A DNA stretch of 64,000 nt from Holophagales bacterium (lineage in GTDB: Bacteria > Acidobacteriota > Thermoanaerobaculia > Multivoradales > Multivoraceae). Below, piece after piece: positions 3,915 to 55,535 of the stretch. The stretch covers positions 62,001-126,000 of the forward strand of contig VYDI01000047.1 of assembly GCA_009843505.1 (NCBI GenBank), given 5' to 3'. The position numbers and the translations under genes are program-made. Numbering within the stretch: position 1 is the stretch's first letter; each line of letters begins with the position of its first letter. The notes beneath the pieces were generated by a model that searched no databases, had not been told where the DNA came from, and saw only the letters and a list, made by a program, of their open reading frames with translations.

Positions 3915-3916
3915 CG

Positions 3917-5050: not shown

Positions 5051-5067
5051 GCCGTCTCCCACCACCC

Positions 5068-5982: not shown

Positions 5983-6019
5983 TGGAGTTTCTCCTGCGGT
6001 TGAGGATCGAGGCTATCTC

Positions 6020-6025
6020 TAGAAT
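6020..6025 (+). promoter_or_regulatory. Candidate -10 element (TAGAAT), probable leaderless start
   Basis: TAGAAT ends 7 bases before the ATG at 6033, leaving almost no room for a leader. No Shine-Dalgarno sequence lies between them. Inference from sequence and spacing only. Confidence 0.4.
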
Positions 6026-6032
6026 CCGCGTC

Positions 6033-7190: not shown

Positions 7191-7223
7191 AGCGGTCGCC
7201 GGCCCTCGACGCGCGAAGACGGG

Positions 7224-7579: not shown

Positions 7580-7785
7580 CGTCGTCTCTCGTTTGCCCGG
7601 TCCACTCCTCATCGCTGTCTCCTCTCTTCCTGTCGCACGGGATACCATTCACGCGTGTTTGGTTGAGGCGAGGCCCTTTCGCCTCGAAGGCGGTTCGCTT
7701 ACTGTGGCCATCGTGACGACCAAGACCAAGCCGCGCTCCGGCCGGCGCCTGAGTCGGCTCGGCTGGAAGTGACTCGAGGCAGCTC

Positions 7786-7923
7786 GTGCGCGCGCGGGTC
7801 ACCTACTTCCGCCAGGTCGGCTACTACGCCCTCGATCTTGGAGAGACGAAAGCCAGACGGCGGGAGCTCCTGCCGCTCTACGTTCGGGTGCTGACCGGTG
7901 TGACGCCGAGCAGAAAGGACTAG
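7786..7923 (+). other. Short unassigned coding-like fragment in an otherwise gene-free stretch
   Basis: The 7580-8014 stretch has no convincing complete gene. One frame of about 45 codons (TYFRQVGYYALDLGETKARR, then ELLPLYVRVLTGVTPSRKD) has coding-like composition and ends at 7923. It may be the C-terminal remnant of a lost gene; I do not recognise it. Confidence 0.3.
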
Positions 7924-8014
7924 CGGGAGGCCAGTTCGAAGGGACTAACGGATCTGGTGCGCTGGCCGCCTGCAACCTGAGTAACGGCCGACACACCTGG
8001 GAGATGGAGGAACC

Positions 8015-8917
8015 ATGATCATGCCGCCGAGAGTATTGACCGTTGTCGCACTCGTTGCGGCTGTCCTTCCAGGTGACCTGGCTTTCTCGCAGGAAGCTGA
8101 GGAGTTACCGCTAACGCTCAGCAATGAGACGGTCGTCGGGGGGTTCGTCGAGCCCGCTCGCAGGATACGAGCAGAGGGATGGGACTGGGACCACGAGGTC
8201 AGAATCTACCTGCCTCCCAGCTACCGCAGCTCCGATCGGACCTATCCGACCTTGTGGGTCACCGACAACTCGCTCGAACTGATCCAGGGCGCCTTGATGG
8301 GAGCCGAGTTCGGGATGGCGCCGGAGTTGATCGTTGTCGCCGTCGGGGCCCCGACGGGCACTTCGCCGGCGGAGTTCCAGCGTCGGCGCTCGTACGACTT
8401 CATCCCCGACAGGAGCCTGATGGGAGACCTCTTTGCTGCAGCGCCCGACGGCACGTTCGGTGGCGCGCCGGGGTTTCTCCACTTCCTGGTGCACCAGCTC
8501 AGACCGCTACTGGCCGAGGAGTACCGGATGGACCCCGAGGATCACGGCTACGCCGGTCACTCCGGAGGTGCCCAGTTCGGGCTCTACGTGCTCTTCAACG
8601 AGCCGGAGAGCTTCGACAAGTACGTTCTCAGCAGCCCTGCGGTCTCTCAGCCTTGGCTGGAGATGGAGGAGGCCTGGAACGAGGAGCACAAGGACCTTGA
8701 GGCGAAGGTGTTCCTGAGCGCCGGCGAGGCGGAGGCGAGCGATCCGGTCTGGGCGGCCGCCCAGATCGTGTCGACGGTCGCCCTCGTCGCCGAGCGCCTG
8801 GCGACTCGTAACTACGAGTCGCTAGAACTGAGCGTCCGGATCTTCCCCGGCGAGGACCACCTGACCGTGATGCCCATCGCCTACATGCGGGGGGTGCGCC
8901 AGCTCTACGCTGAGTAG
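8015..8917 (+). CDS. Exported alpha/beta hydrolase of esterase-D/IroE type
   Basis: A protein of 300 aa. A GGAGG lies just upstream of two close ATGs (8015 and 8021). Signal peptide to about residue 26 (VVALVAAVLPGDLAFSQ). The nucleophile elbow is GHSGGA, preceded by a DPEDHGYAG strand, and a likely catalytic His is in FPGEDHLTV. The fold matches putative esterases such as ferri-siderophore esterases IroE/Fes, but substrate specificity cannot be inferred. The neighbouring remnant at 7224 appears to be a decayed relative, so this could be a former tandem pair. Confidence 0.85.
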   Translation: MIMPPRVLTVVALVAAVLPGDLAFSQEAEELPLTLSNETVVGGFVEPARRIRAEGWDWDHEVRIYLPPSYRSSDRTYPTLWVTDNSLELIQGALMGAEFGMAPELIVVAVGAPTGTSPAEFQRRRSYDFIPDRSLMGDLFAAAPDGTFGGAPGFLHFLVHQLRPLLAEEYRMDPEDHGYAGHSGGAQFGLYVLFNEPESFDKYVLSSPAVSQPWLEMEEAWNEEHKDLEAKVFLSAGEAEASDPVWAAAQIVSTVALVAERLATRNYESLELSVRIFPGEDHLTVMPIAYMRGVRQLYAE

Positions 8918-9029
8918 GAGGACTTCATGAACTGGAAGGCGAGTTCGATTCCGCGGACTCGCCGGGGCACTCCTTCCCCTCCGTGAGTGACGGGCACTTG
9001 TCCAGCTAGCTTGCTAGCGGAAGCCGCGC

Positions 9030-10667
9030 TCAGTTGTACCAGTAGATGTGCTCGTCGTCCGGAGCGTCCGGATCGAGCAGCGTCTTGTCGATGTTGACCG
9101 GGCTCTGGGTGGCCCAGGGCCAGATCGGCGGCGCCTGCTCCTCGTTGTGTGCGGCGAGGAGCTTCTTCAGGGCCGCGACCCGCTCCGGCTCGGAGTCGGC
9201 GAGGTTGTGCTGCTCGGTGGGGTCCTTCTTCATGTTGAAGAGCCATACCCCCCCGGGGGGTTCGCTGATCTGGAGTTTCCAGCCGTCGGCGAGGACGACC
9301 TGATAGTCGCCGGTGCGCCAGAAGAGACGGTCGTGCGGCGCGCCTTCGACTTCACCCAGGACGTGCGGCACCAGGTCGACGCCGTCGATCTTCCGGTCGC
9401 CGGGCAGATCGACTCCCGCCGCGGCCGCCGCGGTCGAGAAGATGTCGAAGCCGTGCACCGGGGCTTCGTAGACCTGGCCTGCGCTGAGACGGGCTGGCCA
9501 CTTCAGGAGGAACGGCACGTGGATGCCGCCCTCGAAGAAGCTGATCTTCCAGCCGCGGAACGGCTCGTTGACGCGCGGCAGGCCGATGTAGGCCGGCGCC
9601 CCGTTGTCGGAGGTGAAGAAGACGAGCGTGTTCTCTTCGAGGCCGTTCTCGCGCAACGCCTCGAGCACCCGGCCCACGCTCCGGTCTAGCGAGCGGACCA
9701 TCGCGGCGTAGACCCGCAGGCGATGCTCCTCGATGTGGGACAGCGCCTCGTAGTCGGCGCGCAGCGCCTGCAGCGGCGTGTGCACCGCCCAGTGCGCCAG
9801 GTAGAGAAGGAAGGGCCGGTCCCTGTTCGCCTCGATGACCTGGACCGCCTGGTCGGTGTAGTAGTCGGTCAGGTACCCGCCAGGCTCGAAGGAAGGACTG
9901 TCGTTGAACGACGCCTCGTAGCGCACGAAGCGCCACAGGAAGCGGTCGATCCCATCGAACTCCTGCTTCGAGTTGACGACGTTCGGGTCGTCCTCGGGCA
10001 GATACAGGCCGCTCCTCATCAGCAGGCTCTCGTCGAAGCCCTGCTCGTGAGCTCGCGTGCCGTCGCCCGTGCCGAGGTGCCACTTGCCGATGTGCACGGT
10101 GTGGTAGCCGGCCGGGTTGAGCAGCTCGGCGAGCGTGATCTCGGACGGCGGCACGCCCTTCTCGTCGATGGGAACCGTCGCCCCTTCCGGGTTGCCGCTC
10201 GTCTGCCGGAGCCTGCCTTCCGTGCTCGAGAGGCGGGGCACCATCGTGGCGAACCCCGGCGGCGTCGGCGTGAACTCGAAACCGAAGCGGGTGCCGTAGC
10301 GGCCGGTCATCAGCGCGGCCCGCGACGGCGCGCAGGTGCCGTTGGCCGAGTAGCCGTTGGCGAAGTGAACGCCGTCACGTGCCAGCGAGTCGATGTGCGG
10401 GGTCGGCACCGTGCCGCCCGCGACGCCGCCGCCGAGCCAGGTCAGGTCGTTCCAGCCGAGGTCGTCGGCGAGGATGACGACGATGTTGGGCGGCCGCTCC
10501 CCGGCGGGCCGTCCTTCGGGATCGGCGCCGGACTGCCAGTCGATCGTCCGGGTCGGACCGATCTCGGCGGGTTGAAACTGTGCTGCCGCGCCCGTGGCGC
10601 CGGCCGCGAAGGCCGCGGCGAGCCCGAGGGCGACCAGGCCGCGTCGCGCGCCGCATCGATTCATCAT
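9030..10667 (-). CDS. Exported arylsulfatase (formylglycine type I)
   Basis: A protein of 545 aa. Signal peptide with Ala-rich h-region ending near AAAQ (residue 30). The N-terminal metal-binding motif is ILADDLGWNDL, and the sulfatase signature is CAPSRAALMTGRYG with Cys112 to be converted to formylglycine (C-x-P-S-R). Later motifs GKWHLG and TSDNGAP are also typical. It hydrolyses sulfate esters, probably periplasmic, with a Ca2+ cofactor. It points outward from the TolB-like gene at 10715. Conversion needs a formylglycine-generating enzyme, which is not in this window. A second, lipoprotein sulfatase is at 19920. Confidence 0.93.
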   Translation of the reverse strand: MMNRCGARRGLVALGLAAAFAAGATGAAAQFQPAEIGPTRTIDWQSGADPEGRPAGERPPNIVVILADDLGWNDLTWLGGGVAGGTVPTPHIDSLARDGVHFANGYSANGTCAPSRAALMTGRYGTRFGFEFTPTPPGFATMVPRLSSTEGRLRQTSGNPEGATVPIDEKGVPPSEITLAELLNPAGYHTVHIGKWHLGTGDGTRAHEQGFDESLLMRSGLYLPEDDPNVVNSKQEFDGIDRFLWRFVRYEASFNDSPSFEPGGYLTDYYTDQAVQVIEANRDRPFLLYLAHWAVHTPLQALRADYEALSHIEEHRLRVYAAMVRSLDRSVGRVLEALRENGLEENTLVFFTSDNGAPAYIGLPRVNEPFRGWKISFFEGGIHVPFLLKWPARLSAGQVYEAPVHGFDIFSTAAAAAGVDLPGDRKIDGVDLVPHVLGEVEGAPHDRLFWRTGDYQVVLADGWKLQISEPPGGVWLFNMKKDPTEQHNLADSEPERVAALKKLLAAHNEEQAPPIWPWATQSPVNIDKTLLDPDAPDDEHIYWYN

Positions 10668-10714
10668 TCTTGTCCTTTCGAGTGGTTGGGGCGGTAGCCT
10701 ACGAGATCAACGCG

Positions 10715-11629
10715 ATGGGTCCCGTTCTCTTCATCTGCCTTCTGTTTGCCGTCACGACTGCAACACATGTGCAGCCAGCGGCGGCACAGAACAACTCCTC
10801 CAGGATCGCCTTCGTATCCAATCAGGACGGCAACCCGGAGATCTACGTCATGAACGAAGGTGGCTCCGACCTGACGCGGCTGACCAACAATCCGGGCTTC
10901 GATGGTGCCCCGACGTGGTCGCCCGACGGCACCCGGATCGCATTCGCATCATCTCGCAACGACAACGCCGACATCTACATCATGAACGCCGACGGCTCCA
11001 ACGTCGTCCGTCTCACCAGCCACGCGGCCAACGACGGCGGCCCCTCCTGGTCGCCCGACGGCTCGATGATCGCCTTCGATTCGAATCGCAGCGGCAGCTC
11101 TCAGGTGTGGCGTACCAACGTCGACGCCGGAAACTGGGGCTACAACCTCACGCAGCTCACCGAAGACCATCCTCTGGGGCGCGTAAACAACTTCGTCGCC
11201 TGGTCGCCCGACGGTTTGTGGATCGCCTTCGAAGCCGACCGTGACCGCGACGACCCGGAGATCTATCTGGCCAACGCCGTCGATGGCACCAACCAGCAGC
11301 GATTGACGTTCACTCGTGCTCTTGACGAGGTCCCCAGTTGGACACCCGATGGCAGGCAGATCGTCTACTCCACCGATCGCGACGGGGCACCGCAGAACGG
11401 CAACTATGAGATCTACATCATGAACGTCGATGGCTCCGACAAGCGCCGTCTGACCACCGCCCCAGGTGCCGACTCCAACCCTTCGGTGTCGGCCGACGGC
11501 ACCCGGATCGCCTTCGATTCTTCGCGCGGCGGAGGGAGGGAGATCTATGTCATGAACCTGGATGGCTCCAATCCGATTCGACTGACGGGCACAGGATCCA
11601 ACAGCAACCCCGCCTGGTCACCGTTCTAG
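10715..11629 (+). CDS. Exported TolB-like PD40/WD40 beta-propeller
   Basis: A protein of 304 aa. Signal peptide FICLLFAVTTATHVQPAAAQ. Five to six repeats carry the PD40 pattern, for example APTWSPDGTRIAFASSRNDN, PSWSPDGSMIAFDSNR and PSWTPDGRQIVYSTDRDG, with D.EIY.MN.DGS..RLT between them. The whole protein is a small propeller, shorter than TolB because it lacks an N-terminal domain. Proteins like this act as periplasmic scaffolds or sensors. Divergent from the sulfatase at 9030 with about 47 bp between the genes. Confidence 0.85.
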   Translation: MGPVLFICLLFAVTTATHVQPAAAQNNSSRIAFVSNQDGNPEIYVMNEGGSDLTRLTNNPGFDGAPTWSPDGTRIAFASSRNDNADIYIMNADGSNVVRLTSHAANDGGPSWSPDGSMIAFDSNRSGSSQVWRTNVDAGNWGYNLTQLTEDHPLGRVNNFVAWSPDGLWIAFEADRDRDDPEIYLANAVDGTNQQRLTFTRALDEVPSWTPDGRQIVYSTDRDGAPQNGNYEIYIMNVDGSDKRRLTTAPGADSNPSVSADGTRIAFDSSRGGGREIYVMNLDGSNPIRLTGTGSNSNPAWSPF

Positions 11630-11700
11630 GCGGGCTCGGGGCTAGAGTAAGACGGATGCCGCTTCCGGCATCCGAATCAGAGAGAGGGAGCGTTCGACCC

Positions 11701-12912
11701 ATGAAGAGAGGCCGACTTGCCTTGCTCGCCCTTGTCACGATGTTCCTGGCCGTTCCGGCGTTTTCCCAGGACGGCGACGAGAACGAGAACGAGAGAGTGA
11801 AGGGCGCGCACGAGAACCAGTCGCCGGAGGCGCGGCAGGACGATCTCGGTATCACGGTTCCCGTGCCGACGAGCCACCCGGGCCGCCGCTACCCGGCGGA
11901 ACACGAGTTCCCGACCGGCCCGGCCATCGGCGAGCGCCTGCCCGAGTTCGAGTTGCCGAACCAGGACGGCGAGTTGGTCGACTTCCACGCGGACCGGGGC
12001 GACTCGAAGGCGGTCGTCGTCTTCTATCGCTCCGCCGTCTGGTGACCGTACTGCCGCACGCAGCTGGTCGAGCTGCAAGACAACCTGGAACTCTTCGACG
12101 CCGAGGACATCAAGGTCTACGGCATCAGCTACGACACGCAGGAGCAACTGAAGACCTTTGCGGAGGATCGGGGCGTCACCTACGACCTGCTCTCCGATGC
12201 CGACTCCGCGGTCATCAAGCGCTTCGGCATTCTGAACACGACGATCGATCCCGACGCGGATGTGCTCAACCGGGCGACCCAGAAGGGCTTCTACGGCATT
12301 CCCTTCCCGGGCGTCTACGTCACTGACCGTGACGGCCAGGTGACGGAGAAGTTCTTCCACCGTCACTACGCGACACGCACTTCGGCCGGGACCATTCGCG
12401 ACAGCGCGATCGGCCGCATCCTCGCCAAGCACGAGGTTCCGGCCGCCGAACTAGGCGACGAGCACGTCGAGGTCTCCGTCTTCCTCGCCGACGAGGCGCT
12501 CAAGTTCGAGTACACGAGCACGCTCCATGTGCGGTTCGAGGTCGCCGACGGTTACCACATCTACGCGGAACCCCTGCCCGACGGCTTCATCGCGTCCACG
12601 GCGACCGTCGTACCGACAAAGGGGGTGAGGCTCGGCGAGCCGGTCTACCCGGCGACCTCCGAGCGCGAGTTCCCCCAGCTCGGCGTGACGCTCAACGTCT
12701 ACGAGGAAGGCACGACCGACATCGCCATCCCGATCGCCCTGAACGCCGAGATTCTGAACTGGCCGATTCAGGACAAGCCGACCGAGATCGAGATCCCGGT
12801 CGACGTCGTCTACCAGGCCTGCAGCGAGACGGTCTGCTACGTGCCGAAGGAAGAGACGGTCGTGCTCAAGGCGCCGATCGAACCGCTCGTGATGCCGGGT
12901 CGCCGCAGATAG
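11701..12912 (+). CDS. Putative selenoprotein: AhpC/TSA-type redoxin fused to DsbD-alpha-like domain, UGA read as Sec
   Basis: The ATG at 11701 opens a signal peptide (LALLALVTMFLAVPAFSQ), then a redoxin domain (PAIGERLPEFELPNQDGELV, AVVVFYRSAVW). An in-frame TGA at 12043-12045 follows, after which the same frame continues PYCRTQLVELQDNLELF, IKVYGISYDTQEQLKTFAED, to a stop at 12912. Reading TGA as selenocysteine gives 403 aa with U115 in a UPYC redox motif, replacing the usual CxxC. The C-terminal third (VYQACSETVCYVP) resembles DsbD N-terminal/alpha domains. A hairpin with a GGTC loop sits about 20 bases after the TGA. Likely a periplasmic or membrane-side thiol peroxidase or disulfide reductase. 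Sec insertion factors (SelA, SelB, SelC, SelD) are outside the window. The alternative is a nonsense-mutated Cys form. Confidence 0.75.
12046..12080 (+). promoter_or_regulatory. Candidate bacterial SECIS hairpin
   Basis: Directly after the in-frame TGA the RNA can form GCAGCT-GGTCG-AGCTGC (12060-12076), a perfect 6-bp stem with a loop starting GGUC. About 20 bases separate the TGA from the loop, close to the spacing in E. coli fdhF, whose apical loop is also GGUC. This supports recoding rather than termination. The lower stem is weak. Confidence 0.6.
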
Positions 12913-44955: not shown

Positions 44956-45240
44956 ATGCACGCCCTGATCGAGTCCCACCGAGCGGAAATCCGCGCGTTA
45001 GCAGCGCGACACGGCCTCCGCGATGTCCGCCTCTTCGGCTCGATGGCTCGCGGAGACGCGGATGAAGCGAGTGACGTCGACCTGCTGGTCACCTTGCCGG
45101 CCGGGTGCAGCGGTCTGGCGCTTGGGGCACTCCTGATGGACGTGCAAGCTCTTCTCGACCGGCGGGTGCACGTGGTGACGGAGCGAAGCCTGCACCCGGC
45201 ATTCCGAGACCGAGTGCTCGGGGAAGCGCGGATGCTCTAA
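44956..45240 (+). CDS. Minimal nucleotidyltransferase (MNT), no HEPN partner
   Basis: 94 aa. Pol-beta-type motif LFGSMARGDADEASDVDLLV with the catalytic GS and DxD, typical of MNT antitoxins that AMPylate HEPN toxins. No HEPN gene follows in the next 225 bp, which hold no gene. It could be an orphan remnant or work with a neighbour. Confidence 0.85.
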   Translation: MHALIESHRAEIRALAARHGLRDVRLFGSMARGDADEASDVDLLVTLPAGCSGLALGALLMDVQALLDRRVHVVTERSLHPAFRDRVLGEARML

Positions 45241-45465: not shown

Positions 45466-46839
45466 ATGACTAGCGAGATGCCACCTTTCGCTGGTGCAGC
45501 CGACGCCGACCTCGAAGGCGCGTTGGAGTGGTTTCTGGGTTTTCTGAGCGTCGACGACTGGAAGGCCCGAGTTGCGGCGGTCGAAGAGAACGTCGAGAGG
45601 GGCCTCAGTTCTGTAGCCAGCAGCTTCGGTGCGGAAGGCGGCGATTCTGTCTACACCGGGCCGGACCGCATTGGCTGGTACCTCTACCTGGTAGACGCGG
45701 TGCAGCACCATCCTCTGAGATACGAACCCATCCAGGGTGCCCGGATCGTTCCGATCTTCAAGAGGCTCGGGGCCGACCTAGATCTCTTGAGGAGTATCGG
45801 GGGCGTTGAAGATCGTGTTGGGCGCTTGCTCGACTCCGGTCGCGGTCAGCCCGATGGCGGCCTCTTCGAGTTTCTCATCGCTTTGGTCTGGAAGCGAAGC
45901 GGCTACGCAACGGTGGAGTTCATTCCCGAAACCCCGCACCGCAAGACGCCGGACTTTCTCGCCCGTTCAGGACGAGAGGAGTGGTTCGTCGAGTGCAAGC
46001 GACTGCAGAAGCGATCCGAGTACAGCGAACGGGAACGAGAGAAGTGGCTCGCCATGTGGTCGCCGTTCGCTCAGCACCTCGTGCGGAACGGGCACTCCCT
46101 CTTGTTCGACATCACGTTCCATGTTGAACTCGCGACACTTGCCGACGACTACCTGATGGAACATCTGGCGGGGAAGCTCCACCTTCTTTCTCTCCCCTGC
46201 CGTATCGTCTCGAACGACACGTGGGACGTGACGGCGAAGCCCGTCGACTACGTCCGAGCCCGAGCCCATCTGCAGCGGTACTTCGTCCGGTTCCCGTCCG
46301 ACCAGCTACGGGAACTTGTAGCCGGTTGCCGCAACCCGCGTCGTGACTTTTCGTTTGTCGCCAAGGGCGACCTCGTCCGGTTTGGCGGTGCCTCGGGCAA
46401 CAATAGGTTTCTGGAGGACCTCTCCTTTGCCGCGGGCTCGTTCTGGAGCTCCGATGCGCCACAGGCGATCCGGCACAAGGCTCGCGACGTCAGGCGTCAG
46501 CTTGTTCGCGCCGTCGAGCAGTTCCCGTCCGACGCCAGATGCGCCGTTCACGTCGGCCTTGAGACGTGGGACGGCCCCCTCGTCGAGGAGGAGCGGCTCG
46601 GCCGCATTGTGCGCTCCGTTCTGGACTTCGACGCCTTGGGCAAGGACCTCAGGTGGGTCTACTGTCACTTCTTTGAGTCCTACGCCCCTCCGGACCAGAC
46701 ATGGGTGGTCGACGAAACCGTGCTTCGCTTTGGCCCTGAACTGTTAGGTCGTGACGAGCCAATCTGCTTCAGAGCGGCTCTCCTTCCAGAGACGGATACG
46801 TTCTCCGAGGGTCTTCATTGGCGCCGGGCCCCGCCGTAG
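45466..46839 (+). CDS. PD-(D/E)XK-type nuclease-like protein, unknown family
   Basis: 457 aa. After an alpha-helical N-terminus, residues 133-180 look like a restriction-endonuclease-fold core: FEFLIALVWKRSGYATVEFI, then TPDFLA with Asp163, then EWFVECKRL with Glu176 and Lys178. The spacing fits D-x(n)-ExK. The remainder shows no domain I recognise. It lies directly upstream of the Gabija-like pair with a 341-bp gap, so it is part of the same defence island and may be a separate defence gene. Confidence 0.7.
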   Translation: MTSEMPPFAGAADADLEGALEWFLGFLSVDDWKARVAAVEENVERGLSSVASSFGAEGGDSVYTGPDRIGWYLYLVDAVQHHPLRYEPIQGARIVPIFKRLGADLDLLRSIGGVEDRVGRLLDSGRGQPDGGLFEFLIALVWKRSGYATVEFIPETPHRKTPDFLARSGREEWFVECKRLQKRSEYSEREREKWLAMWSPFAQHLVRNGHSLLFDITFHVELATLADDYLMEHLAGKLHLLSLPCRIVSNDTWDVTAKPVDYVRARAHLQRYFVRFPSDQLRELVAGCRNPRRDFSFVAKGDLVRFGGASGNNRFLEDLSFAAGSFWSSDAPQAIRHKARDVRRQLVRAVEQFPSDARCAVHVGLETWDGPLVEEERLGRIVRSVLDFDALGKDLRWVYCHFFESYAPPDQTWVVDETVLRFGPELLGRDEPICFRAALLPETDTFSEGLHWRRAPP

Positions 46840-47180: not shown

Positions 47181-49208
47181 TTGCACATCACGTCTATAAG
47201 AGTCAAGAACTTCCGTGGTCTGAAGGACGTGGAGATACCGCTTTCCCGCTCTACCGTTCTGATCGGCGAGAACAACTCAGGTAAGTCGTCAGTGCTCGAT
47301 TGCATCTCCCTAGCACTCGGGAGACGCTGGGGCCGGCGCGGAACCGGCTTCTCGGAGTATGACCTCAGGATGGACGGCGGCTCCGGCGGGAATGGTCGTA
47401 TCCGAAACACGGACGCTGGCTCGGAAGAGTCGCCGGTTGGAGGCGAGGAGTCGTTCCTGAGTGCGGACGCGGCGGCCGATGGAGCGGCGGAGACCTCTAT
47501 TGAGTTGTTCTTCACTGAGCAGACCGGCGACGAGTGGCCCGAAGAAATCACAAGCGGCCTATTCGGGATAATCCAGACCGATCCTCTGACAGGCCTCAAC
47601 TCGATCACGCTGCGGGTGACGTACAAACTGAACTTGCTCGAGAGAGACTACGATTCCGGCTGGGCGTTTCTTGACATCAACGGCGATCCGATCGGCTCGA
47701 AGGAGGCCAGGCGCGCCACCAACACCCAGAACTTCTTTAAGTTTGTTCCGGTGTTCTTCCTGTCGGCTCTGCGGGACGCCTCCGAGGAGTTCTCATCACG
47801 GTCGCAGTTCTGGGGTAGTCTACTCAAGGCTGTCGAGATTCCACCAGACGAATTGCAACTACTCGACACGGCAGTCGAGGAACTGAACGCCAGGTTGCTT
47901 GCGGCGGACCCGCGGGTTGCCGAGACAGTCGAGCGCCTGAAGGAAATCCAGACCGTTGTGGCGAACGGTGCCGCTGAAGACGTGTCGATTCGCGCGTTGC
48001 CCATGAAGGTCTGGGAACTTCTGGCCCGCTCTGAAGTCGTGATTAAGGGGGAGAGCGACGCCCCGTGGCTACCGCTTCGGCGCCACGGTCAAGGCGTCAA
48101 GAGTCTGTCGGTCATCTACCTGTTTGATGCCTTCATCGGACGCCTATTGAAGGAGAGGTTTGCCGAACATAGCGAGCCTATTGTGGCGCTAGAGGAGCCC
48201 GAAGTGCATCTTCACCCGCAAGCTGTGCGGGCTCTCTGGCCTCAGATTGACGCGTTACCGGGTCAGAAGATTGTCGCCACGCACTCGCCCTACTTCATAC
48301 AGTACGTACCGATTCGGGATATTCGTCTACTGCGCCGGGGCGCAGACGGTGTCCGGGTACATCTCGTCCGCGATAGCGTTTCGGTGGACCTTCCAGCGAA
48401 TGACGAGCTTCTGGCTGTGGCCGACCAGCGCAAGGGTCAACTCTCGTACGATCTGGAACGCGGCCTGTTGCACGCCTCCAGACCCGTCGGCGAGGACCTC
48501 TGCCGCAAGCTCCTGAAGTGCTTTCCTGGTACTGCTTGTCGACAGCAACATTCGGCAATCCGGAGGCTCCAGAGGTGTTCGAATGCACTGATGGAGGCCG
48601 AAGACTTGGACGAACTGGAAGACTGGGCGCGTAGGTTTCGGGGGGAGATCTTCTTCTCCCGCTTCTGGATACTCTGCGAGGGCCAGTCTGAGGTCTTTCT
48701 TCTGACGGCACTGTTCGAGGCTCTCGCACTCCCCCTGGATGTGCGAAGTGTGTCTCTAATCGACTACCAGAACAACGGCAGTGCTCGTGCCTTTGCGTGC
48801 CTTGCTCGGGCTTTCGGGTTCCCTTGGGCGCTACTTGCGGACGGTGACGGTCAAGGCCGAAACACGCTCGCCAGCTTGCGGAGTGCTGGCTTCAGTGAGG
48901 AGGAGCTCGCTGCGAGGACGGTGCAACTACCTAACGATACCGACCTTGAGGACCATGTCGTGAGCTCGGCCTGGCGGCCGTTGGCCCTCGCGGTTGCGAA
49001 GGATTCGGATTCGGGCATGGCGGAGAAAGTCGACGACGCAGTGCTCGCGAAGACCTTGCGTGCGCAGAAGCCCCTATGGGCGAGACGATTGGGCGAGAAA
49101 CTCGTACGGGTTCCGCCAACGGTGGAGAGCCTCCCGGACGCGCTGGGGCGTCTCCGGGAGATTCTTCTGGAGCACGAGGCCAGCCATGGCGCAGCCGGCA
49201 ACGCTTGA
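47181..49208 (+). CDS. gajA: OLD-family ATPase/TOPRIM nuclease, GajA-like
   Basis: 675 aa from a TTG with GAGGAGG 7 bases upstream. ATPase: Walker A LIGENNSGKSS (residues 28-38), Walker B region VALEEPEVHLHPQAVRALWP, then IVATHSPYFIQYVP. C-terminal TOPRIM: WILCEGQSEVFLL (acidic Glu) and ALLADGDGQGRN (DxD). OLD proteins with ABC ATPase and TOPRIM domains adjacent to a UvrD helicase are class 2 OLD nucleases; the pair is the Gabija anti-phage system. Its 3' end overlaps the helicase gene by 23 bp, so they are coupled. GajA appears intact. Confidence 0.8.
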   Translation: MHITSIRVKNFRGLKDVEIPLSRSTVLIGENNSGKSSVLDCISLALGRRWGRRGTGFSEYDLRMDGGSGGNGRIRNTDAGSEESPVGGEESFLSADAAADGAAETSIELFFTEQTGDEWPEEITSGLFGIIQTDPLTGLNSITLRVTYKLNLLERDYDSGWAFLDINGDPIGSKEARRATNTQNFFKFVPVFFLSALRDASEEFSSRSQFWGSLLKAVEIPPDELQLLDTAVEELNARLLAADPRVAETVERLKEIQTVVANGAAEDVSIRALPMKVWELLARSEVVIKGESDAPWLPLRRHGQGVKSLSVIYLFDAFIGRLLKERFAEHSEPIVALEEPEVHLHPQAVRALWPQIDALPGQKIVATHSPYFIQYVPIRDIRLLRRGADGVRVHLVRDSVSVDLPANDELLAVADQRKGQLSYDLERGLLHASRPVGEDLCRKLLKCFPGTACRQQHSAIRRLQRCSNALMEAEDLDELEDWARRFRGEIFFSRFWILCEGQSEVFLLTALFEALALPLDVRSVSLIDYQNNGSARAFACLARAFGFPWALLADGDGQGRNTLASLRSAGFSEEELAARTVQLPNDTDLEDHVVSSAWRPLALAVAKDSDSGMAEKVDDAVLAKTLRAQKPLWARRLGEKLVRVPPTVESLPDALGRLREILLEHEASHGAAGNA

Positions 49209-50307
49209 GGGGGCTCTTGGGAGCCTTAGCGATGTCCAACGTTGTGCCGTGCGACATCAAGACGGGGCGCTGCTCGTCCTAGCCGGGCCGGGTTCAGGCA
49301 AGACCCGGATTCTGACGACTCGCATTGCGCGGCTGTTGCACGAGGCAGAGGATGCACCGTTCCGCGTGTTGGCGCTGACCTTCACGAACCGTGCCGCGGA
49401 CGAGATGCGCGGCCGGATAGAGCGGATGGCACCGGAGGCCGAACATCGGCTCTTTATCGGGACGTTTCATGCCTTCAGCGCAGATGTTCTGCGGCAGCAC
49501 GGCCAGCATCTCGGAATCAAGACGGACTTCAGGATCTACTCGACGACCGAAGACCGCGCCGAGATCGGGAGTCTTGCGATCGCGTCCGAAGCGGGGAGGG
49601 AAGCCGGTCTGGAAGCCCAGCATGGGAGTTTTCTGCCGTTGGTTGATCGGGCGAAAGCCAAACTGATTCCGAGTAAGGGCGTCGCGAGCCGATTCCGGAG
49701 TGCTGGGCGCGGCGCTAAGTTCGAAGCGTTCTATGCTGCCTACGACGCGGCGCTTGGCAAGGCGAATGCCCTTGACTTTGACTCGCTAGTCTTCAACGTG
49801 TACCGTCTCTTCGTGCGCTTCCCCGCGCTCGCTCGGCGCTATCGCTCGGTGTATCGCTACTGCTGCATTGATGAGTTTCAAGATACGAATCTTGCTCAGT
49901 ACGAGACGATTAAAGCTATGGCCGGCGGAGAGTTGCGCAACGTGTTTGCGGTGGCGGATGACGATCAGATCATCTATCAGTGGAATGGTGCCGACCATCG
50001 CCGACTCGATGAGTTCCGAGAGGATTTTGAGGCTGAGATAGTGCAGGTCCCGACGAATTTTCGCTGTCCGCCTGAGGTTGTGACCTGCGCCAACAGGCTC
50101 ATAGCCCATAATCTGTTGCGTAACCCCATAAAGAGACCACTGGTTGCGGAGCGGGAATCTACCGGTTCCCCATCGGTCGTCGAAGTACTGTCATTCGGAA
50201 CCGCCGAGGACGAGACCCAGGGAATCGCGGAGCACATAGAGAGGCACCGCGGGGATGCGTTAGCGCAGACCGCCGTTCTCGCTCGGGTGCGCCGTCTGCT
50301 TGCCCCG

Positions 50308-50315
50308 ATTGGAGA
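50308..50315. repeat. Target-site duplication, left copy (ATTGGAGA)
   Basis: Identical to 54732-54739; the 8-bp length is typical of IS1595-family insertions. Confidence 0.95.
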
Positions 50316-50346
50316 GGGGATTATACTCGATAGTAACCATTCCTGA
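50316..50346. repeat. Left terminal inverted repeat
   Basis: 31 bp, perfect reverse complement of 54701-54731. It ends TCCTGA, whose TGA is in frame with and truncates the helicase. Confidence 0.95.
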
Positions 50347-50413
50347 CCGGGCGATTTGACTCGTTCGAGATCCATCCGGTACCCCTTTGGTGGAACTACC
50401 GGAGGAGATCTCC

Positions 50414-50629
50414 ATGCGACGCAGATATCTACGCAGCCGGGACCGGGATGAACGGTACCTGGATGCACTGGACGAGGCAAGGGACAACGTGCGCCTTACT
50501 CGGCGGGACTACCACGAGGCCCTGGACGATCTTGAGGAACTAGAGGCCGTGGGGCCGGAGGGACCGGATGCCGACGACGCTACCGACCCAGACTTCTATC
50601 GGCCACGGCGAAGACGGGAAGCGAGCTAG
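50414..50629 (+). CDS. Passenger: small charged helical protein
   Basis: 71 aa from the ATG at 50414, preceded by GGAGGAG. Composition is arginine- and aspartate-rich (MRRRYLRSRDRDERYLDALD, YHEALDDLEELEAVGPEG), predicting a helix or coiled coil. I do not recognise a family. Overlaps the following frame by 62 bp. Confidence 0.6.
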   Translation: MRRRYLRSRDRDERYLDALDEARDNVRLTRRDYHEALDDLEELEAVGPEGPDADDATDPDFYRPRRRREAS

Positions 50630-50924
50630 GCCGGTCGTGGACGCATCATCACTTCGACGTGTAGCCGAGATAGAACGCCGTCGGCTTGAGACGGTCGAAC
50701 GCCATCAGCGGATGTTTCCCTACGATAGCGAGGACCAGCGGGAGTTGAGACGGCAGGAGATCATCCTCGAGAAGCTCTCCACCGCAACTCGGTGCCTGCA
50801 TGATGTGTACGAGCTACTAGAACTGGAGTTCCCATCCGCCGGGGCGACTACGGAGGCAGTTCATCTACGACTTCCTTCGCCTTCTTCACCGACCGGCATA
50901 TCGCCTTCAGTTTCTTCTGCGTAG
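50568..50924 (+). CDS. Passenger: unknown protein with helical core
   Basis: Up to 118 aa from the ATG at 50568; a GTG at 50637 would give 95 aa. The convincing part is RRVAEIERRRLETVERHQRM and DQRELRRQEIILEKLSTATR. The C-terminal 25 codons are antisense to the minus-strand gene ending at 50848. No known domain. The overlap with the gene at 50414 makes the start uncertain. Confidence 0.45.
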   Translation: MPTTLPTQTSIGHGEDGKRARPVVDASSLRRVAEIERRRLETVERHQRMFPYDSEDQRELRRQEIILEKLSTATRCLHDVYELLELEFPSAGATTEAVHLRLPSPSSPTGISPSVSSA

Positions 50925-51126
50925 CCGACACCGCATCTTGGTACTGGGTGGCATAGACGGCTCCCGAACCATCGGGCAAGGAGACTACAGCAGGCGAGAC
51001 CTGGTCGTTTACGAGGTGCTTCTCGATATCGCGCATGGATCGAGCCAGTGCTTCGAGTTTGTTGGAGAGACAGTTGAGTCGCTCGCTAAGAGTCCCAACG
51101 GGGTCTTTCCCTTCCATACCGATCAT
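50848..51126 (-). CDS. Passenger: small coiled-coil protein
   Basis: 92 aa from the ATG at 51126, coupled by ATGA to the small gene upstream. Heptad-like helices: TLSERLNCLSNKLEALARSM and DAVSATQKKLKAICRSVKKA flank a short loop. No family recognised. It overlaps convergently with the frame ending at 50924. Confidence 0.6.
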   Translation of the reverse strand: MIGMEGKDPVGTLSERLNCLSNKLEALARSMRDIEKHLVNDQVSPAVVSLPDGSGAVYATQYQDAVSATQKKLKAICRSVKKAKEVVDELPP

Positions 51127-51236
51127 CCCCTCTTGATCGCCCTAGCGATCTCGCGTAGTTGTTTGTTGGTTTCCCCTAGGGTGCGGATCAGTTCGTGGAG
51201 CATGCGTTCGATGCCCCTGGTGTTGGTCGCGGCCAT
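51123..51236 (-). CDS. Passenger: 37-aa microprotein
   Basis: Minus-strand ATG at 51236 preceded by AAGGAGGG with 6-base spacing. It reads MAATNTRGIERMLHELIRTL then GETNKQLREIARAIKRG and stops at 51123, overlapping the ATG of the 92-aa gene by ATGA. The strong ribosome binding site and coupled stop/start support a real gene. A single amphipathic helix is expected. Confidence 0.65.
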   Translation of the reverse strand: MAATNTRGIERMLHELIRTLGETNKQLREIARAIKRG

Positions 51237-51529
51237 AGTCGACCCTCCTTGATGGTGGTAGGTGCCCCGGGAAGCGACCCCCTGGGGCGAGAATCAGCGA
51301 GTGTATCTCGGCATTCAGTGCCTGTGCTAGCTTCCGCGCATGGCCGTCCGACACGAGTGGCCCCTGCGTCGGGTCACTCGCTCAATACAACAGCCCGACA
51401 CACGGGGCCGGGGTAGCTCCCCAGCCCTGGGCGAATAGGCGAGACCACCGTGTCACTCGTGTGCATGGACGGCCATAACGGCCCGACACCATCCCGGTGT
51501 CGGCGCGTCGCTATGGAGGACCATGCACG
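51237..51529. other. Structured non-coding segment between divergent passenger genes
   Basis: No gene. Two arms of about 19 bp (ATGGCCGTCC/ACACGAGTG at 51340-51359 and its near-reverse-complement at 51454-51476) could pair across a 94-nt loop. A separate perfect hairpin CCGACACC-ATCCC-GGTGTCGG lies at 51483-51503. It may be a structured RNA or a regulator or transposition site. Function unknown. Confidence 0.5.
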
Positions 51530-52210
51530 ATGGAGTCGACGAAACCGGAGGAGAAGCAGGACGAAGGGAAGATCACAGGCAAGGGATGCCTCGGTTGCCT
51601 GGGCATAGGAGCGGGGATCCTCCTGCTACTGGCGTTCCTCGGCTCGCTACTCCCCGACGACCTGGACTTCCCCGCACAAGAGACAGCGAGCGAGCAGAGC
51701 CCTTCGCCTACCGCCACCACCCAGCCTGAGGTCGAATCCTCACCTCCACCGGCACCGCCACAGCCGGACAACGAGCAACTGGACGAGGCTGCGCGGGCCG
51801 AGGTCACTCAGATGATCTTGGACTTGGGGGAGATCTATGACAGGCAGAAGGACTTCTGGGAACTTGCCAACTCGCGACTGGCATCGAACTGCAACTTGCA
51901 GTCGCTCAACGAGGACACGTGTCAAGTACTTCTCGGCAGTGCCCTGTCGATAGCACAGGGCGTCGTGTACGTGAACCAGATCTCCAGAGACCGGATCCGT
52001 GCGTACCAGCGTCAAGGTCGTGATCTGGGCCCGGATGTCTCGGACGCCCTAGCGACGCTCCAGAAACAGGACGCGGCCTCGAGGGAGATGGAGGCTGGCA
52101 TCCTTGAGCTTGCTCGGCAGGTCGAGCTTGAGAGCGTAGTGAGAACGCTCGGAGGGGCCCACAGGGACGCCCCGATGTTCCGGAGCTTCGCACTGAGGTG
52201 GAGGAATTGA
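51530..52210 (+). CDS. Passenger: single-TM anchored protein with proline-rich linker
   Basis: 226 aa from the ATG at 51530 with GGAGG upstream. A cytoplasmic charged N-terminus (MESTKPEEKQDEGKITGKG) is followed by a TM helix (LGIGAGILLLLAFLGSLL), then a Pro/Thr/Ser-rich linker (SPTATTQPEVESSPPPAPPQ) and a helical C-terminal domain with two cysteines (NCNLQSLNEDTC). Type II membrane topology is likely. No family recognised. Confidence 0.7.
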   Translation: MESTKPEEKQDEGKITGKGCLGCLGIGAGILLLLAFLGSLLPDDLDFPAQETASEQSPSPTATTQPEVESSPPPAPPQPDNEQLDEAARAEVTQMILDLGEIYDRQKDFWELANSRLASNCNLQSLNEDTCQVLLGSALSIAQGVVYVNQISRDRIRAYQRQGRDLGPDVSDALATLQKQDAASREMEAGILELARQVELESVVRTLGGAHRDAPMFRSFALRWRN

Positions 52211-52254
52211 TCGAGTACTTCCGCGCTTTTCGATCAATTTCTGCAAGAAACTTA

Positions 52255-52283
52255 TTGACTTTAGGAACATAAAACGCTACAAT
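52255..52283 (+). promoter_or_regulatory. Promoter of transposase, leaderless
   Basis: TTGACT (52255-52260), a 17-base spacer and TACAAT (52278-52283). It lies in an A+T-rich dip. The GTG at 52293 is 9 bases from the -10, so transcription starts at or next to the start codon. Confidence 0.7.
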
Positions 52284-52292
52284 TGCCTCGTT

Positions 52293-53270
52293 GTGGAAGG
52301 CAAGGATCCAGCGAAAGCACCGGGGAAATTCTATCGAAAGGGCCTGTCCCTGATCGAAATGATCCGGATGTTCCCGGATGACGAGGCGGCGGAACGCTGG
52401 TTCTACGCCCAGCGGTGGCCCGAGGGCCTGTGCTGCCCACGCTGTGGCGACACGAACGTGCAGGAGAAGACCACCCACCCCACGATGCCGCACAGGTGCC
52501 GGGGCTGCAGGAAGTTCTTCTCCGTCCGCACGGGAACGCCCATGGAGGCCTCGAACCTCGGCCTGCAGGTCTGGGCCCTAGCGATCTACTTGCTGTGCAC
52601 GCACCTGAAGGGACAGTCGAGCATGAAGCTCCACAGGGATCTCAGCGTCACGCAGAAGACCGCATGGCATCTCGCCCACCGGATCCGAGAGGCATGGAAC
52701 GCCGGCGATCCCCCTCCCTGGGAAGATCGCTTCGACGGGCCGGTCGAAGTCGACGAGACGTTCATGGGTGGACTGGAGAAGAACAAACACCGCTCGAAGC
52801 GCCTCAAGGTCGGGGGCGGAACGGGCGGCAAGGTCGTGGTTGCAGGCATGAGGGACCGCGCCACCAACAAGGTCAAAGCCGCCGTGGTGCCCAACCGAGA
52901 GCGGTGGGTGCTCCAGACCTTCATCCGCAACCGCGCCAAGGCTGGCGCTACCGTCTACACCGACGACTTCTCTGGCTACAAGAAGCTGCCGGACTACACC
53001 CACGAGCCCGTCAACCACAGCGTCGGGGAGTACGTCCGGGGACGGGCGCACACACAGGGCATCGAGTCCATGTGGAGCATGCTCAAGCGAGGCCACAAGG
53101 GCACCTACCACCGCATGAGTTGGCGGCATCTGAACCGCTACGTCAACGAGTTCACCGGCCGCCACAACCAGCGGGAGCTTGATACACTCGACCAGATGAC
53201 CCAGGTCGTACTGGGGATGAACGGGAAGAGGCTACGGTATGCTGACCTTACGGGGAGGAGAGCGGCGTGA
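52293..53270 (+). CDS. IS1595/ISXO2-type DDE transposase
   Basis: 325 aa from a GTG. A zinc ribbon (CCPRCGDTNVQ and CRGCRKFFSVRTGTPMEAS) precedes a winged-helix segment (GQSSMKLHRDLSVTQKTAWH). The catalytic core has VEVDETFMGG (first Asp), VYTDDFSGY (second Asp) and HTQGIESMWSMLKR (Glu). It cuts and joins the 31-bp ends of the element. The gene appears intact and the element may still move. Confidence 0.92.
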   Translation: MEGKDPAKAPGKFYRKGLSLIEMIRMFPDDEAAERWFYAQRWPEGLCCPRCGDTNVQEKTTHPTMPHRCRGCRKFFSVRTGTPMEASNLGLQVWALAIYLLCTHLKGQSSMKLHRDLSVTQKTAWHLAHRIREAWNAGDPPPWEDRFDGPVEVDETFMGGLEKNKHRSKRLKVGGGTGGKVVVAGMRDRATNKVKAAVVPNRERWVLQTFIRNRAKAGATVYTDDFSGYKKLPDYTHEPVNHSVGEYVRGRAHTQGIESMWSMLKRGHKGTYHRMSWRHLNRYVNEFTGRHNQRELDTLDQMTQVVLGMNGKRLRYADLTGRRAA

Positions 53271-53345
53271 GAAGAAGATGCCGAAACTTCTGCGAAACAC
53301 CCGATCCCACCACTACGCAGAGTCAATAGCTAGCCAGAGGGGACC

Positions 53346-54092
53346 ATGAATGCCAGAAAAGAAGAAGACTCCAAGTCGTCCAAGGCCGGAACCGGAGCCA
53401 AGGCAGCCGCAGGAGGAGGGCATAGAGAAGTACGAGCGGTTCGAGAAGCGTCGGATTCCGACAGTCGGAGAGAGCGAGGGGGCAACAAGGAGCGTACCGG
53501 ACGATCTGGATCCGCCGGATCCACCAATGGAGGAAGAAGGGTAGATCCGCAGTACAAGAAGTCCTACAAGCTGCTGTTCGGCGTCCAGAGGTCAATCAGG
53601 TACCACTCGCGAAGACGAGCATGGTTCGAGTTCCTCCATAGCGCCACCATTGCATCCAGTTTGGTGCTGACTGGCGCCTTCCCGATCATCTTTGGCGATG
53701 ACGCAGGTGTCCTAAAGATCACGAGCGTCTCCGCCGCTGTCATCCTCTCTATCGGCCTCGTCGTGGGCTACGCCCGTAAAGCCGCACAACATCACGTCCT
53801 GTCGTCGAAGTTCGCCGTGCTCGAGAGCAAGATGGTCCCGCTGGACCAGTCGAACCCGTACTCCAACGCAGAGTACGAGAAGTTCTTCGCGGAAAGAACA
53901 TCGCTTGAAGTAGAGGAGCCAGCGAGAAAGAACCTACTCAACGCGCTGTGTGACTATGAGCTAAGGCGAGCGACACGCAGGGACTTGGACGAGAAGACAA
54001 TGGCTGCTCTAAGTAAGATCCCGTGGAGGAGACATGCGACGGCGCAACTCTTTAGTCAGGCGACATACGTCCACCGAGAACTGAAGAGCTAA
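53346..54092 (+). CDS. Passenger: SLATT-like two-TM protein
   Basis: Up to 248 aa from the ATG at 53346 after AGAGGGG. The first 65 residues are low-complexity and charged. The domain follows: SIRYHSRRRAWFEFLHSATI, then TM1 (ASSLVLTGAFPIIFG), TM2 (SVSAAVILSIGLVVGYA) and a C-terminal helical tail. The layout and the RRxWFExLH motif resemble SLATT domains, which act as membrane effectors in nucleotide-signal defence systems. No partner cyclase is on the element. A 64-codon frame from 53350 to 53544 (MPEKKKTPSRPRPEPEPRQP) overlaps it and shares the ribosome binding site; either or both may be translated. Confidence 0.6.
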   Translation: MNARKEEDSKSSKAGTGAKAAAGGGHREVRAVREASDSDSRRERGGNKERTGRSGSAGSTNGGRRVDPQYKKSYKLLFGVQRSIRYHSRRRAWFEFLHSATIASSLVLTGAFPIIFGDDAGVLKITSVSAAVILSIGLVVGYARKAAQHHVLSSKFAVLESKMVPLDQSNPYSNAEYEKFFAERTSLEVEEPARKNLLNALCDYELRRATRRDLDEKTMAALSKIPWRRHATAQLFSQATYVHRELKS

Positions 54093-54192
54093 GACCGACT
54101 CGTACTCCTGAGTAGGGAGCGCCGACGCTACCGCGGCTCGACGGACGACACGACGGCCGCGTGGTTAGAACGATGCGTGGTAGACTGGGACC

Positions 54193-54675
54193 ATGAGAAT
54201 CGTCCCTGTTGACTTCCGAAGAACCCTGAAGAACGTTCATGTGGAGTTGGGCAGAGTCCACGCGCTCATAGCGGGTGCTGACAGCGCGAAAGAAGTCCAA
54301 GATGACGTTTTGCTCAAAGAAACACGGAACATCGAGCGGCTGTCCGAGACGCTCCGCAAAGCCGCAGCCTCGGTTCGATTCCAAATCCAGAGGGAACCAC
54401 TTCCCCCGGATCAGGCTCTGATTCTAGGCCACCCCGAAGGGCTCAGACTTGAAGACTCCATCTTGTCGGTTCAAAGGCAGCTTGGAGACGTGGACATCGC
54501 GCTTGACGAGATAACCGCCAAGATCGCACGCCAGGTGGATCCCAGTGATGAGATTCCGAACAGCGAGCATCGCGTGCGCCAGTTGTACGAGGACTATGGG
54601 CGTGCGCTGGAGAGGAGGGACTACCTAGAGAAGGTGGAACGGAGTCTCCATGCTCGGCCGGAGGTTGAAGGTTAG
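54193..54675 (+). CDS. Passenger: unknown helical protein
   Basis: 160 aa. Predicted mostly helical: RRTLKNVHVELGRVHALIAG, RNIERLSETLRKAAASVRFQ and RLEDSILSVQRQLGDVDIAL. No motif recognised. It is the last gene before the right terminal repeat. Confidence 0.65.
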   Translation: MRIVPVDFRRTLKNVHVELGRVHALIAGADSAKEVQDDVLLKETRNIERLSETLRKAAASVRFQIQREPLPPDQALILGHPEGLRLEDSILSVQRQLGDVDIALDEITAKIARQVDPSDEIPNSEHRVRQLYEDYGRALERRDYLEKVERSLHARPEVEG

Positions 54676-54700
54676 GGACACCGCTTGCCCATGCTCCCGC

Positions 54701-54731
54701 TCAGGAATGGTTACTATCGAGTATAATCCCC
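54701..54731. repeat. Right terminal inverted repeat
   Basis: 31 bp, perfect reverse complement of 50316-50346. Confidence 0.95.
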
Positions 54732-54739
54732 ATTGGAGA
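54732..54739. repeat. Target-site duplication, right copy (ATTGGAGA)
   Basis: Matches 50308-50315 exactly; joining the two flanks through a single copy restores the helicase frame. Confidence 0.95.
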
Positions 54740-55535
54740 TGCGTTGGCTGACCGCGGTATCGCGTCCCAGGTAGTAGTCCGCCGGGATGAGTTCCAGAGC
54801 CCGGCATTTCGCTGGTTGCACAGTGCCTTGCGTCTGGCGGTTCACAACACCGATGAGAGGGTCTTCAGGGTCTTTTGCAGCGCGTTTAACGAGATGTTCA
54901 CGGGCACGCTGTCGGCGTCCGCGATTCTCGCCGAGTCCGAAGGCAGGCGGGTCGATCTGCTGACGGCATGGCATCGGGCAGTCCACGACGTGATGAACTT
55001 ACCGGAGGCGCTTAGCTTGGCGGACGCTACTGCGCGACATCACCGCGGGGGGGTGGATCATGCGAGCTTCGCCGCGGGCGTGATCGGCGTGTTTGACCAA
55101 TGGCTCGAGGAAGACAGGGACGATGCGGGGAGGGCGGCGGTGTTCTCAGCCATAGAAGACGACCGCGGTGCTTGGCGAGCCTTGTCCGCCGAAGTAGGGC
55201 GTGCTATCGGCGTGCCGTCGGACCCCGAGCGGTTTCTGCAGGAGCTCGATTTACGATCGAAGGAGCCACCGGTTGGCTCGAGTACTGTATCGCTGATGAC
55301 CATCCATGGCGCCAAGGGAAGCGAATTCGATCATGTCTACGTCTGTGGTTTGGCTGAGGGGATAGTGCCGAGCTACCGTAGTAAAAGCGCCGCGGAGTTG
55401 GAAGAGGAGCGCCGTAGCTGCTTTGTGGCTGTAACTCGGTGTCAGCAGAGCCTCACGCTTAGCTACGCCAGGCGATACTCTGGCTGGCGCAAGGCGCCTT
55501 CACGCTTTCTGGGTGAAATGGGGCTACAGCCCTGA
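54740..55535 (+). pseudogene. gajB: UvrD-like helicase (GajB-like), 3' part, separated by transposon
   Basis: The frame continues from the duplication as DALADRGIASQVVVRRDEFQ and ends QP at 55535. Motif V (TIHGAKGSEFDHVYVCGL) and motif VI (CFVAVTRCQQSLTLSYA) are present. With 49186-50315 it makes a 641-residue helicase after excision. On its own it lacks an ATP-binding site. A TTG at 54744 could initiate a short product but is unlikely to be functional. Confidence 0.9.

What the first reader, a model, noticed from the sequence alone, without database searches (positions are those of the whole stretch)
49186..55535. Gabija-like helicase gene split by a cargo transposon with a perfect footprint
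Seen directly: the helicase runs from 49186, stops inside the element's end, and resumes at 54740. Flanks carry ATTGGAGA on both sides and perfect 31-bp inverted repeats. Joining the flanks through one duplication copy restores an uninterrupted frame of 641 codons with motifs I-VI complete. The GajA-like nuclease remains intact, so an anti-phage system appears switched off by insertion, and could be switched back on by precise excision.
Basis: partly seen in the sequence, partly recalled or inferred. Interest (0 to 1): 0.85.

Follow-up and report, generated by a model that had tools for sequence, protein, structure and literature searches.

The report
Cargo transposon splitting a Gabija gene
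A jumping gene carrying passenger genes has landed inside one of the two genes of a bacterial anti-phage system (Gabija), probably disabling it, and its close relatives often carry other anti-phage genes, so one defence may have been traded for another.

Summary
A 4,416-bp element (50316-54731; 31-bp perfect TIRs; 8-bp duplication ATTGGAGA) interrupts a UvrD-type helicase gene; joining the flanks through one duplication copy gives 641 codons. PADLOC profiles call the upstream gene GajA (1.7e-212), and the two helicase halves match consecutive stretches of one GajB profile (4-368 and 371-631 of 635). Six intact relatives align across the junction without a gap. GajA is intact; published work says both genes are needed, so Gabija is probably off.

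The 'switch' reading is not supported: no empty-site allele was found, and IS1595-family movement is thought to leave the donor copy in place.

New here: the element belongs to a set of IS1595-family cargo transposons in this genus. A sibling in another species (identical TIRs, 96% identical transposase) interrupts an Mrr-type restriction gene and carries an ApeA-domain gene; a looser relative carries a complete Septu system; several carry DNA methyltransferases. PADLOC matches: at least 9 of 47 cargo ORFs (6 of them methyltransferases) against at most 2 of 84 flanking ORFs. The window's own cargo includes a two-membrane-helix protein with weak SLATT-like fold similarity. Targets are mostly not defence genes (2 of 12).

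The parts
47181..49208 (+). gajA: OLD-type ATPase + TOPRIM nuclease, 675 aa, intact
   Evidence: PADLOC GajA PDLC00062 1.7e-212; PF20469 OLD-like TOPRIM 2.1e-12, PF13175 3.2e-28; GENNSGKS, CEGQSE, ADGDG present at residues 29, 498, 551 regions
49186..50315 (+). 5' part of gajB (376 codons + 2 nt), overlapping the gajA stop; includes left duplication copy
   Evidence: PADLOC GajB PDLC00114 positions 4-368 of 635, 2.9e-142; PF00580 2.1e-66
50308..50315 (.). left copy of 8-bp target duplication ATTGGAGA
50316..54731 (.). IS1595-family cargo transposon, 4416 bp
   Evidence: TIR, TSD and transposase
50316..50346 (+). left terminal inverted repeat (31 bp perfect); last 3 bases are the stop codon of the truncated helicase
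50387..50629 (+). 80-aa ORF that marks this TIR group (homologues in L147, L148, L149, G000:C11); function unknown
51497..52210 (+). 237-aa ORF with one hydrophobic stretch (by eye), 99% identical in sibling L147; unknown
52293..53270 (+). IS1595-family transposase, 325 aa
   Evidence: NF033547 3.5e-52 above cutoff; PF12762 2e-37 and PF12760 5.1e-6
53346..54092 (+). cargo: two-long-helix protein (true start may be nearer 53523), candidate SLATT-like membrane effector
   Evidence: AF2 core residues about 71-190; 8 SLATT/2TM-effector names in the top 33 BFVD hits, best 1.7e-3; no Pfam SLATT hit itself; homologue in another IS1595 element L155
54193..54675 (+). cargo: 160-aa ORF, unknown, no homologue in the 31 other loci compared
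54701..54731 (-). right terminal inverted repeat
54732..54739 (.). right copy of target duplication ATTGGAGA
54740..55535 (+). 3' part of gajB (motifs V and VI)
   Evidence: PADLOC GajB PDLC00114 positions 371-631 of 635, 9.1e-78; PF13361 1.3e-22

Best explanation
An IS1595-family cargo transposon inserted once, by ordinary cut-or-copy transposition with an 8-bp target duplication, into codon 377 of a gajB gene. Shown: element bounds, footprint, transposase family, Gabija identity of the host operon, an intact gajA, and open frames on both sides. Inferred: the truncated GajB lacks motifs V and VI, so the GajA-GajB machine no longer works as a defence. Also inferred: the loss is an accident of insertion, not a programmed switch. 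The element is one of a set of IS1595-family elements in this genus whose cargo is often anti-phage or restriction-modification genes; its own exchangeable right-hand module holds a SLATT-like two-helix membrane protein. The event therefore plausibly put a candidate defence gene in the place of a working one.
For: Bounds and frame. GajA/GajB profiles. Junction aligns without a gap for 50 columns before and 60 after in the six relatives compared (of 80 fetched). A GajA-like gene lies near gajB in 78 of 83 loci. IS1595 transposase. Sibling L147 (G018): identical TIRs, exact TSD TTCACTGT, 96% transposase, cargo PF18862 ApeA_NTD1 1e-8 (above its cutoff), inside an Mrr-type gene. L164 (G005): PtuA 1.2e-199, PtuB 7.6e-61, MTase_II 5.3e-78. 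Cargo against flanks: at least 9 of 47 against at most 2 of 84 PADLOC matches at 1e-8, one-sided Fisher p 0.0016. Both Gabija genes essential: passages.
Against: No functional data. The window's own cargo is not called defence by PADLOC or Pfam; profile comparison with SLATT_1 relatives was not significant (probability 9.4 against 5.6 for the reversed control); PDB fold search gave nothing at 1e-3. 6 of the 9 cargo matches are methyltransferases, which need not be defence, and 3 of 9 come from one element. With the three neighbouring defence ORFs I had dropped (GajA, GajB part, Mrr) added to the flanks, p rises to 0.019. Three of 13 elements (L152, L157, L162) show no such cargo.
Confidence: 0.72

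Rival explanations
1. Ordinary transposon insertion with neutral, unrelated passengers: Gabija is broken, but the defence-like cargo of relatives is coincidence or reflects methyltransferases being common passengers, and the window's two-helix protein has another role.
For: Window cargo has no curated family match; SLATT assignment rests on weak fold hits; methyltransferase passengers in IS1595 elements are already known (recalled, Siguier et al.; not held); 2 of 12 targets only are defence genes, by eye for the other ten.
Against: Complete Septu pair, ApeA domains and a CAP12 TIR gene next to the same TIR type; enrichment over flanks.
Confidence: 0.25
2. Reversible switch: precise excision restores gajB in part of the population.
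For: Perfect 8-bp duplication and long perfect TIRs; no added stop in 641 codons, which bounds neutral divergence since insertion to about 5.5%, so restoration would still be possible in principle.
Against: No empty-site allele found (for the sibling's site too, 22 genomes); replicative excision leaving the donor copy proposed for IS1595-family elements (passages); nothing in the element looks like an excision regulator.
Confidence: 0.05
3. The two GajB pieces, or the N-terminal piece alone, still give a working or altered Gabija.
For: The left piece keeps motifs I-IV and the region equivalent to domain 1B, where GajA-GajB contacts were mapped (passages; equivalence inferred); GajA alone cuts DNA in vitro.
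Against: Motifs V and VI are lost; no promoter-like site was found at 54550-54850 for the right piece (0 found, 0.2 expected); deletion of either gene abolishes immunity (passage).
Confidence: 0.07
4. Assembly artefact joining unrelated contigs.
For: The genome is a 50-contig draft; reads are not available.
Against: Both junctions carry exact TSD and TIR in one 169,710-bp contig, and the same element type is complete with its own TSD in G018.
Confidence: 0.01

Closest known systems
Gabija (GajA/GajB)
   Same: OLD-type ATPase-TOPRIM gene overlapping a UvrD-type helicase gene; best PADLOC models are GajA and GajB
   Different: gajB is split by a transposon; sequence similarity to the solved B. 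cereus GajB is weak (phmmer about 1e-12 over residues 22-97) and GajA found no Gabija GajA chain at 1e-3
IS1595-family cargo elements (tISCpe8, MTnSag1; tIS)
   Same: IS1595 transposase, TIRs, 8-bp duplication, passenger genes (comparison from passages of PMC5704250)
   Different: tISCpe8 carries lincomycin resistance and is mobilizable; here no relaxase was seen among the ORFs and cargo of the genus set is largely restriction, methylation and anti-phage genes
Septu, ApeA, CAP12/Pycsar TIR, SLATT effectors
   Same: cargo of related elements: PtuA+PtuB in L164, ApeA_NTD1 in L147 and L149, CAP12 TIR in G000:C11; SLATT-like fold in the window
   Different: carried on simple TIR-bounded IS1595 elements; the SLATT link is weak, and L149 and C11 show one TIR only

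Membership tests
Gabija | GajA with ATPase and OLD-like TOPRIM domain | tested here: met
   PADLOC 1.7e-212; Pfam ATPase and TOPRIM; Walker A and TOPRIM motif residues present
Gabija | adjacent, complete GajB UvrD-type helicase | tested here: not met
   Adjacent but split in the occupied allele; the joined frame would meet it
Gabija | phage protection needing both proteins | not testable with these tools
   literature passages only
IS1595 family | ISXO2/IS1595 DDE transposase with zinc ribbon | tested here: met
   NF033547 177 bits against cutoff 75; PF12762 and PF12760 over cutoffs
IS1595 family | terminal inverted repeats and 8-bp target duplication | tested here: met
   12 further elements in the genus
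IS1595 family | intact catalytic residues and observed movement | not tested
   residues not mapped; transposition needs experiment
SLATT effector (window 53346-54092) | sequence profile match to a SLATT family | tested here: not met
   no SLATT hit at E up to 1; hhalign to SLATT_1 not significant; homologue L174 only 0.035
SLATT effector (window 53346-54092) | two long hydrophobic helices plus further helices, SLATT-like fold | tested here: inconclusive
   AF2 core confident, mean pLDDT 66; 8 of top 33 BFVD hits are SLATT-type, none at 1e-3; PDB none
Septu (L164 cargo) | PtuA ATPase plus PtuB HNH | tested here: met
   PDLC00270 1.2e-199 over 2-627 of 627; PDLC00348 7.6e-61

The most novel reading that the evidence does not exclude
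IS1595-family transposons of this genus are a vehicle class for compact immune systems: a conserved transposase core with exchangeable modules bounded by the transposase stop codon and the terminal repeat, carrying Septu, ApeA, CAP12-TIR, SLATT-like or restriction-modification genes between species. When such an element lands in Gabija or an Mrr gene it swaps one defence for another, and the window's two-helix gene is a working new defence gene.
Probability: 0.35. Interest if true: 0.68.

Novelty: new variant of a known kind. Interest (0 to 1): 0.45.

Why it matters
Transposon hits in defence genes are ordinary. If the wider pattern holds, simple one-transposase elements, not only islands, prophages or Tn7-like elements, move small immune systems around a genus, their cargo modules would be a place to look for new anti-phage genes (the window's two-helix gene, L148's 375/195-aa and L149's 380-aa genes), and insertion into older defence genes would be one way by which defence repertoires turn over.

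Tried and rejected
Programmed switch: rejected for lack of an empty site and because of the proposed replicative excision. Defence-gene targeting: rejected as a rule; 2 of 12 joined sites lie in defence genes (gajB, Mrr), the other ten look like unrelated genes or intergenic sites by eye, without a family search; the 13 duplications show no shared sequence. SLATT by profile: not significant; one search was a first run with one wrong-strand row (L183), redone. PDB fold search of the two-helix protein: nothing at 1e-3. Outward promoter: the TIR tip read outward holds TATAAT, but no promoter-like site was found. Phage contigs: transposase gave 5 pattern hits and no relative; the inner 25 bases of the TIR, 0 matches. 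Plasmids: transposase relatives below 60% only; two-helix protein 6 Klebsiella plasmids at 30%. Five of the 17 transposase loci examined (L151, L160, L163, L165, L166) gave no TIR+TSD there or; L175 and L178 gave only weak chance-like pairs (17-18 of 26, 2 TSD mismatches). L148 has three TIR copies but no matching duplication.

Counting notes: the flank set is 84 of 102 ORFs; 18 were dropped (15 overlapping or antisense ORFs and GajA, the GajB 3' part and Mrr). The cargo set is 47:'s 47 I dropped one 99% duplicate (L147:7952) and added L156:6706-7887. Nine distinct cargo matches were read; the tally lists only 25 of 124 families, so nine is a lower bound.
Full report
What is there. The window is C33:62001-126000 of a 4.52-Mb, 50-contig draft genome. 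A 4,416-bp segment, 50316-54731, is bounded by inverted repeats identical over 31 bases (35 of 36) and flanked by ATTGGAGA on both sides. It carries a 325-aa transposase that NCBIfam and Pfam place in the IS1595 family. The helicase frame that starts at 49186 runs into the left repeat and stops at its last three bases (50344-50346); the other part resumes at 54740. Joined through one duplication copy the frame is 641 codons.

Which system was hit. PADLOC's best model for the upstream 675-aa gene is GajA (PDLC00062, 1.7e-212). The left helicase part matches GajB PDLC00114 at 4-368 of 635 and the right part the same model at 371-631, so the insertion point is the seam. Six of the 80 fetched intact relatives were aligned with the joined frame: 45-61% identity overall, and no gap in the 50 columns before and 60 after the seam. 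A GajA-like gene lies within the fetched stretch in 78 of 83 loci; the closest GajB relative (L039, 66% over the left part) and the genus loci L179 and L180 have none. Similarity to the solved B. cereus GajB is weak, and GajA found no Gabija chain at 1e-3, so 'Gabija' here means the profile families and gene order.

Consequence. The occupied allele keeps motifs I-IV and loses V and VI (motif names recalled). Papers seen as passages report that GajA and GajB are each essential in vivo and that GajA alone cuts DNA in vitro. Loss of defence is therefore the likely outcome, but inferred. No stop or frameshift has appeared in either half; by my estimate this bounds neutral divergence since insertion to about 5.5%, which fits a fairly recent insertion but does not date it.

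No switch. Among the 60 genomes searched (own included, 20 others of the genus), DNA of the left part found only short conserved stretches of 66-91% identity in 36 of 60; the nearest protein homologues are 51% or less. In the species-level contig collection the best of 80 kept loci is 66% identical. So no empty-site allele was found, with the limit that one genome per species is held. A review seen in passages describes IS1595-family cargo elements (tISCpe8, MTnSag1) with 8-bp repeats and proposes replicative excision that leaves the donor copy.

The element's kin. The TIR occurs within 3 mismatches at three places in the own genome and in 5 of 60 genomes, own included. G018 holds a 5,093-bp sibling (L147:6505-11597) with identical TIRs, its own exact duplication and a 96% identical transposase. 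Its core is 93% identical in DNA; similarity ends at the transposase stop codon and resumes only in the terminal repeat, so the right-hand cargo is an exchangeable module. The sibling sits inside a gene whose joined frame (345 aa) has HARE-HTH and Mrr_cat domains and carries a 451-aa protein with ApeA N-terminal domain 1 (1e-8, above cutoff). Of the other TIR-group loci, G000:C11 has a CAP12/Pycsar TIR gene (PF10137 1.4e-24) and G014 an ApeA_NTD1 gene (7.4e-11), but each shows only one TIR, so their place inside an element is inferred from the shared 80-aa ORF. G002 (L148) holds two unassigned genes, G016 (L150) is cut by a contig end. G005 (L164; 4 and 7 TIR mismatches, exact duplication) carries PtuA, PtuB and a type II methyltransferase.

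Genus-wide set. Transposase relatives at 1e-30 occur in 13 of 21 genus genomes, own included. Of 17 transposase loci examined, 11 gave long TIRs with an exact 8-bp duplication and L164 a twelfth; reversed sequences of 12 loci gave none. With the window this makes 13 elements, 2.5-8.8 kb. Cargo includes cytosine methyltransferase + HNH (L153), cytosine methyltransferase + GIY-YIG (L154), N6/N4 methyltransferase-HNH fusions (L156, L159), methyltransferase + REase-like protein (L158; REase_II 1.5e-7) and DUF4411 + IrrE-type protein (L161). At PADLOC E 1e-8 at least 9 of 47 cargo ORFs match, in 7 of 13 elements, against at most 2 of 84 flanking ORFs; one-sided Fisher p 0.0016, or 0.019 with the three dropped defence neighbours added to the flanks. 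ORFs are not independent, 6 of 9 are methyltransferases, and the sample is one genus. L152, L157 and L162 show no defence-like cargo. Insertion sites of 12 elements were rebuilt: two in defence genes, ten elsewhere (by eye).

The window's own cargo. 53346-54092 has homologues at 28-38% identity in L155 (inside another IS1595 element), L174, L175 and L176. AlphaFold2 gives a confident core of two long helices and a third. The top viral-library fold hits include 8 SLATT-type proteins among the first 33, best 1.7e-3; the PDB gives nothing at 1e-3. Sequence profiles do not support SLATT. SLATT domains are predicted pore-forming effectors of nucleotide-signalled conflict systems (PMC7159879 passages). 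I treat it as a candidate effector. The 160-aa partner is unassigned.

Known or new. A transposon in a defence gene and IS1595 elements with passengers are known kinds. Methyltransferase passengers in IS1595 elements are in print as I recall (Siguier and colleagues; the 2009 title seen only in a reference list; the 2014 review not held). My searches of the open PMC library for IS1595 with passenger, methyltransferase or defence terms (listings only) showed no title on anti-phage cargo of IS1595 elements; that is a limited search.

Noticed in passing
window 45466-46839: 457-aa gene upstream of gajA with a VECK motif (nuclease-like by eye); no Pfam, PADLOC or NCBIfam match and no homologue in 83 Gabija loci.
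   Followed up: partly
window 44956-45240: 94-aa MNT-type nucleotidyltransferase matching PADLOC candidate PDC-S09 (3.2e-31) and, below cutoff, MntA antitoxin.
   Followed up: no
L036 (G000:C11) 2055-12304: Contig with one group TIR, a CAP12 TIR gene, and ORFs that look like type I restriction-modification genes by eye: possible defence island.
   Followed up: partly
L164 7271-7278: The duplication ACTATCGA of this Septu-carrying element is itself a piece of the group TIR, as if it had inserted into another copy's end.
   Followed up: no
L148 6291-8709: Transposase-less stretch with three group TIRs, two of them about 100 bp apart on one side; a 195-aa ORF there has an RNxxxH-like RNALIH string (HEPN-like by eye, no family match).
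   Followed up: partly
element ends, 50316-50325 and 54722-54731: The tip GGGGATTATA, shared by many elements of the set, reads outward as TATAATCCCC, a perfect -10 hexamer; no -35 found.
   Followed up: partly
L039, L179, L180: GajB-like helicases without a GajA-like gene in the fetched stretch, including the closest relative of the window's gajB.
   Followed up: no
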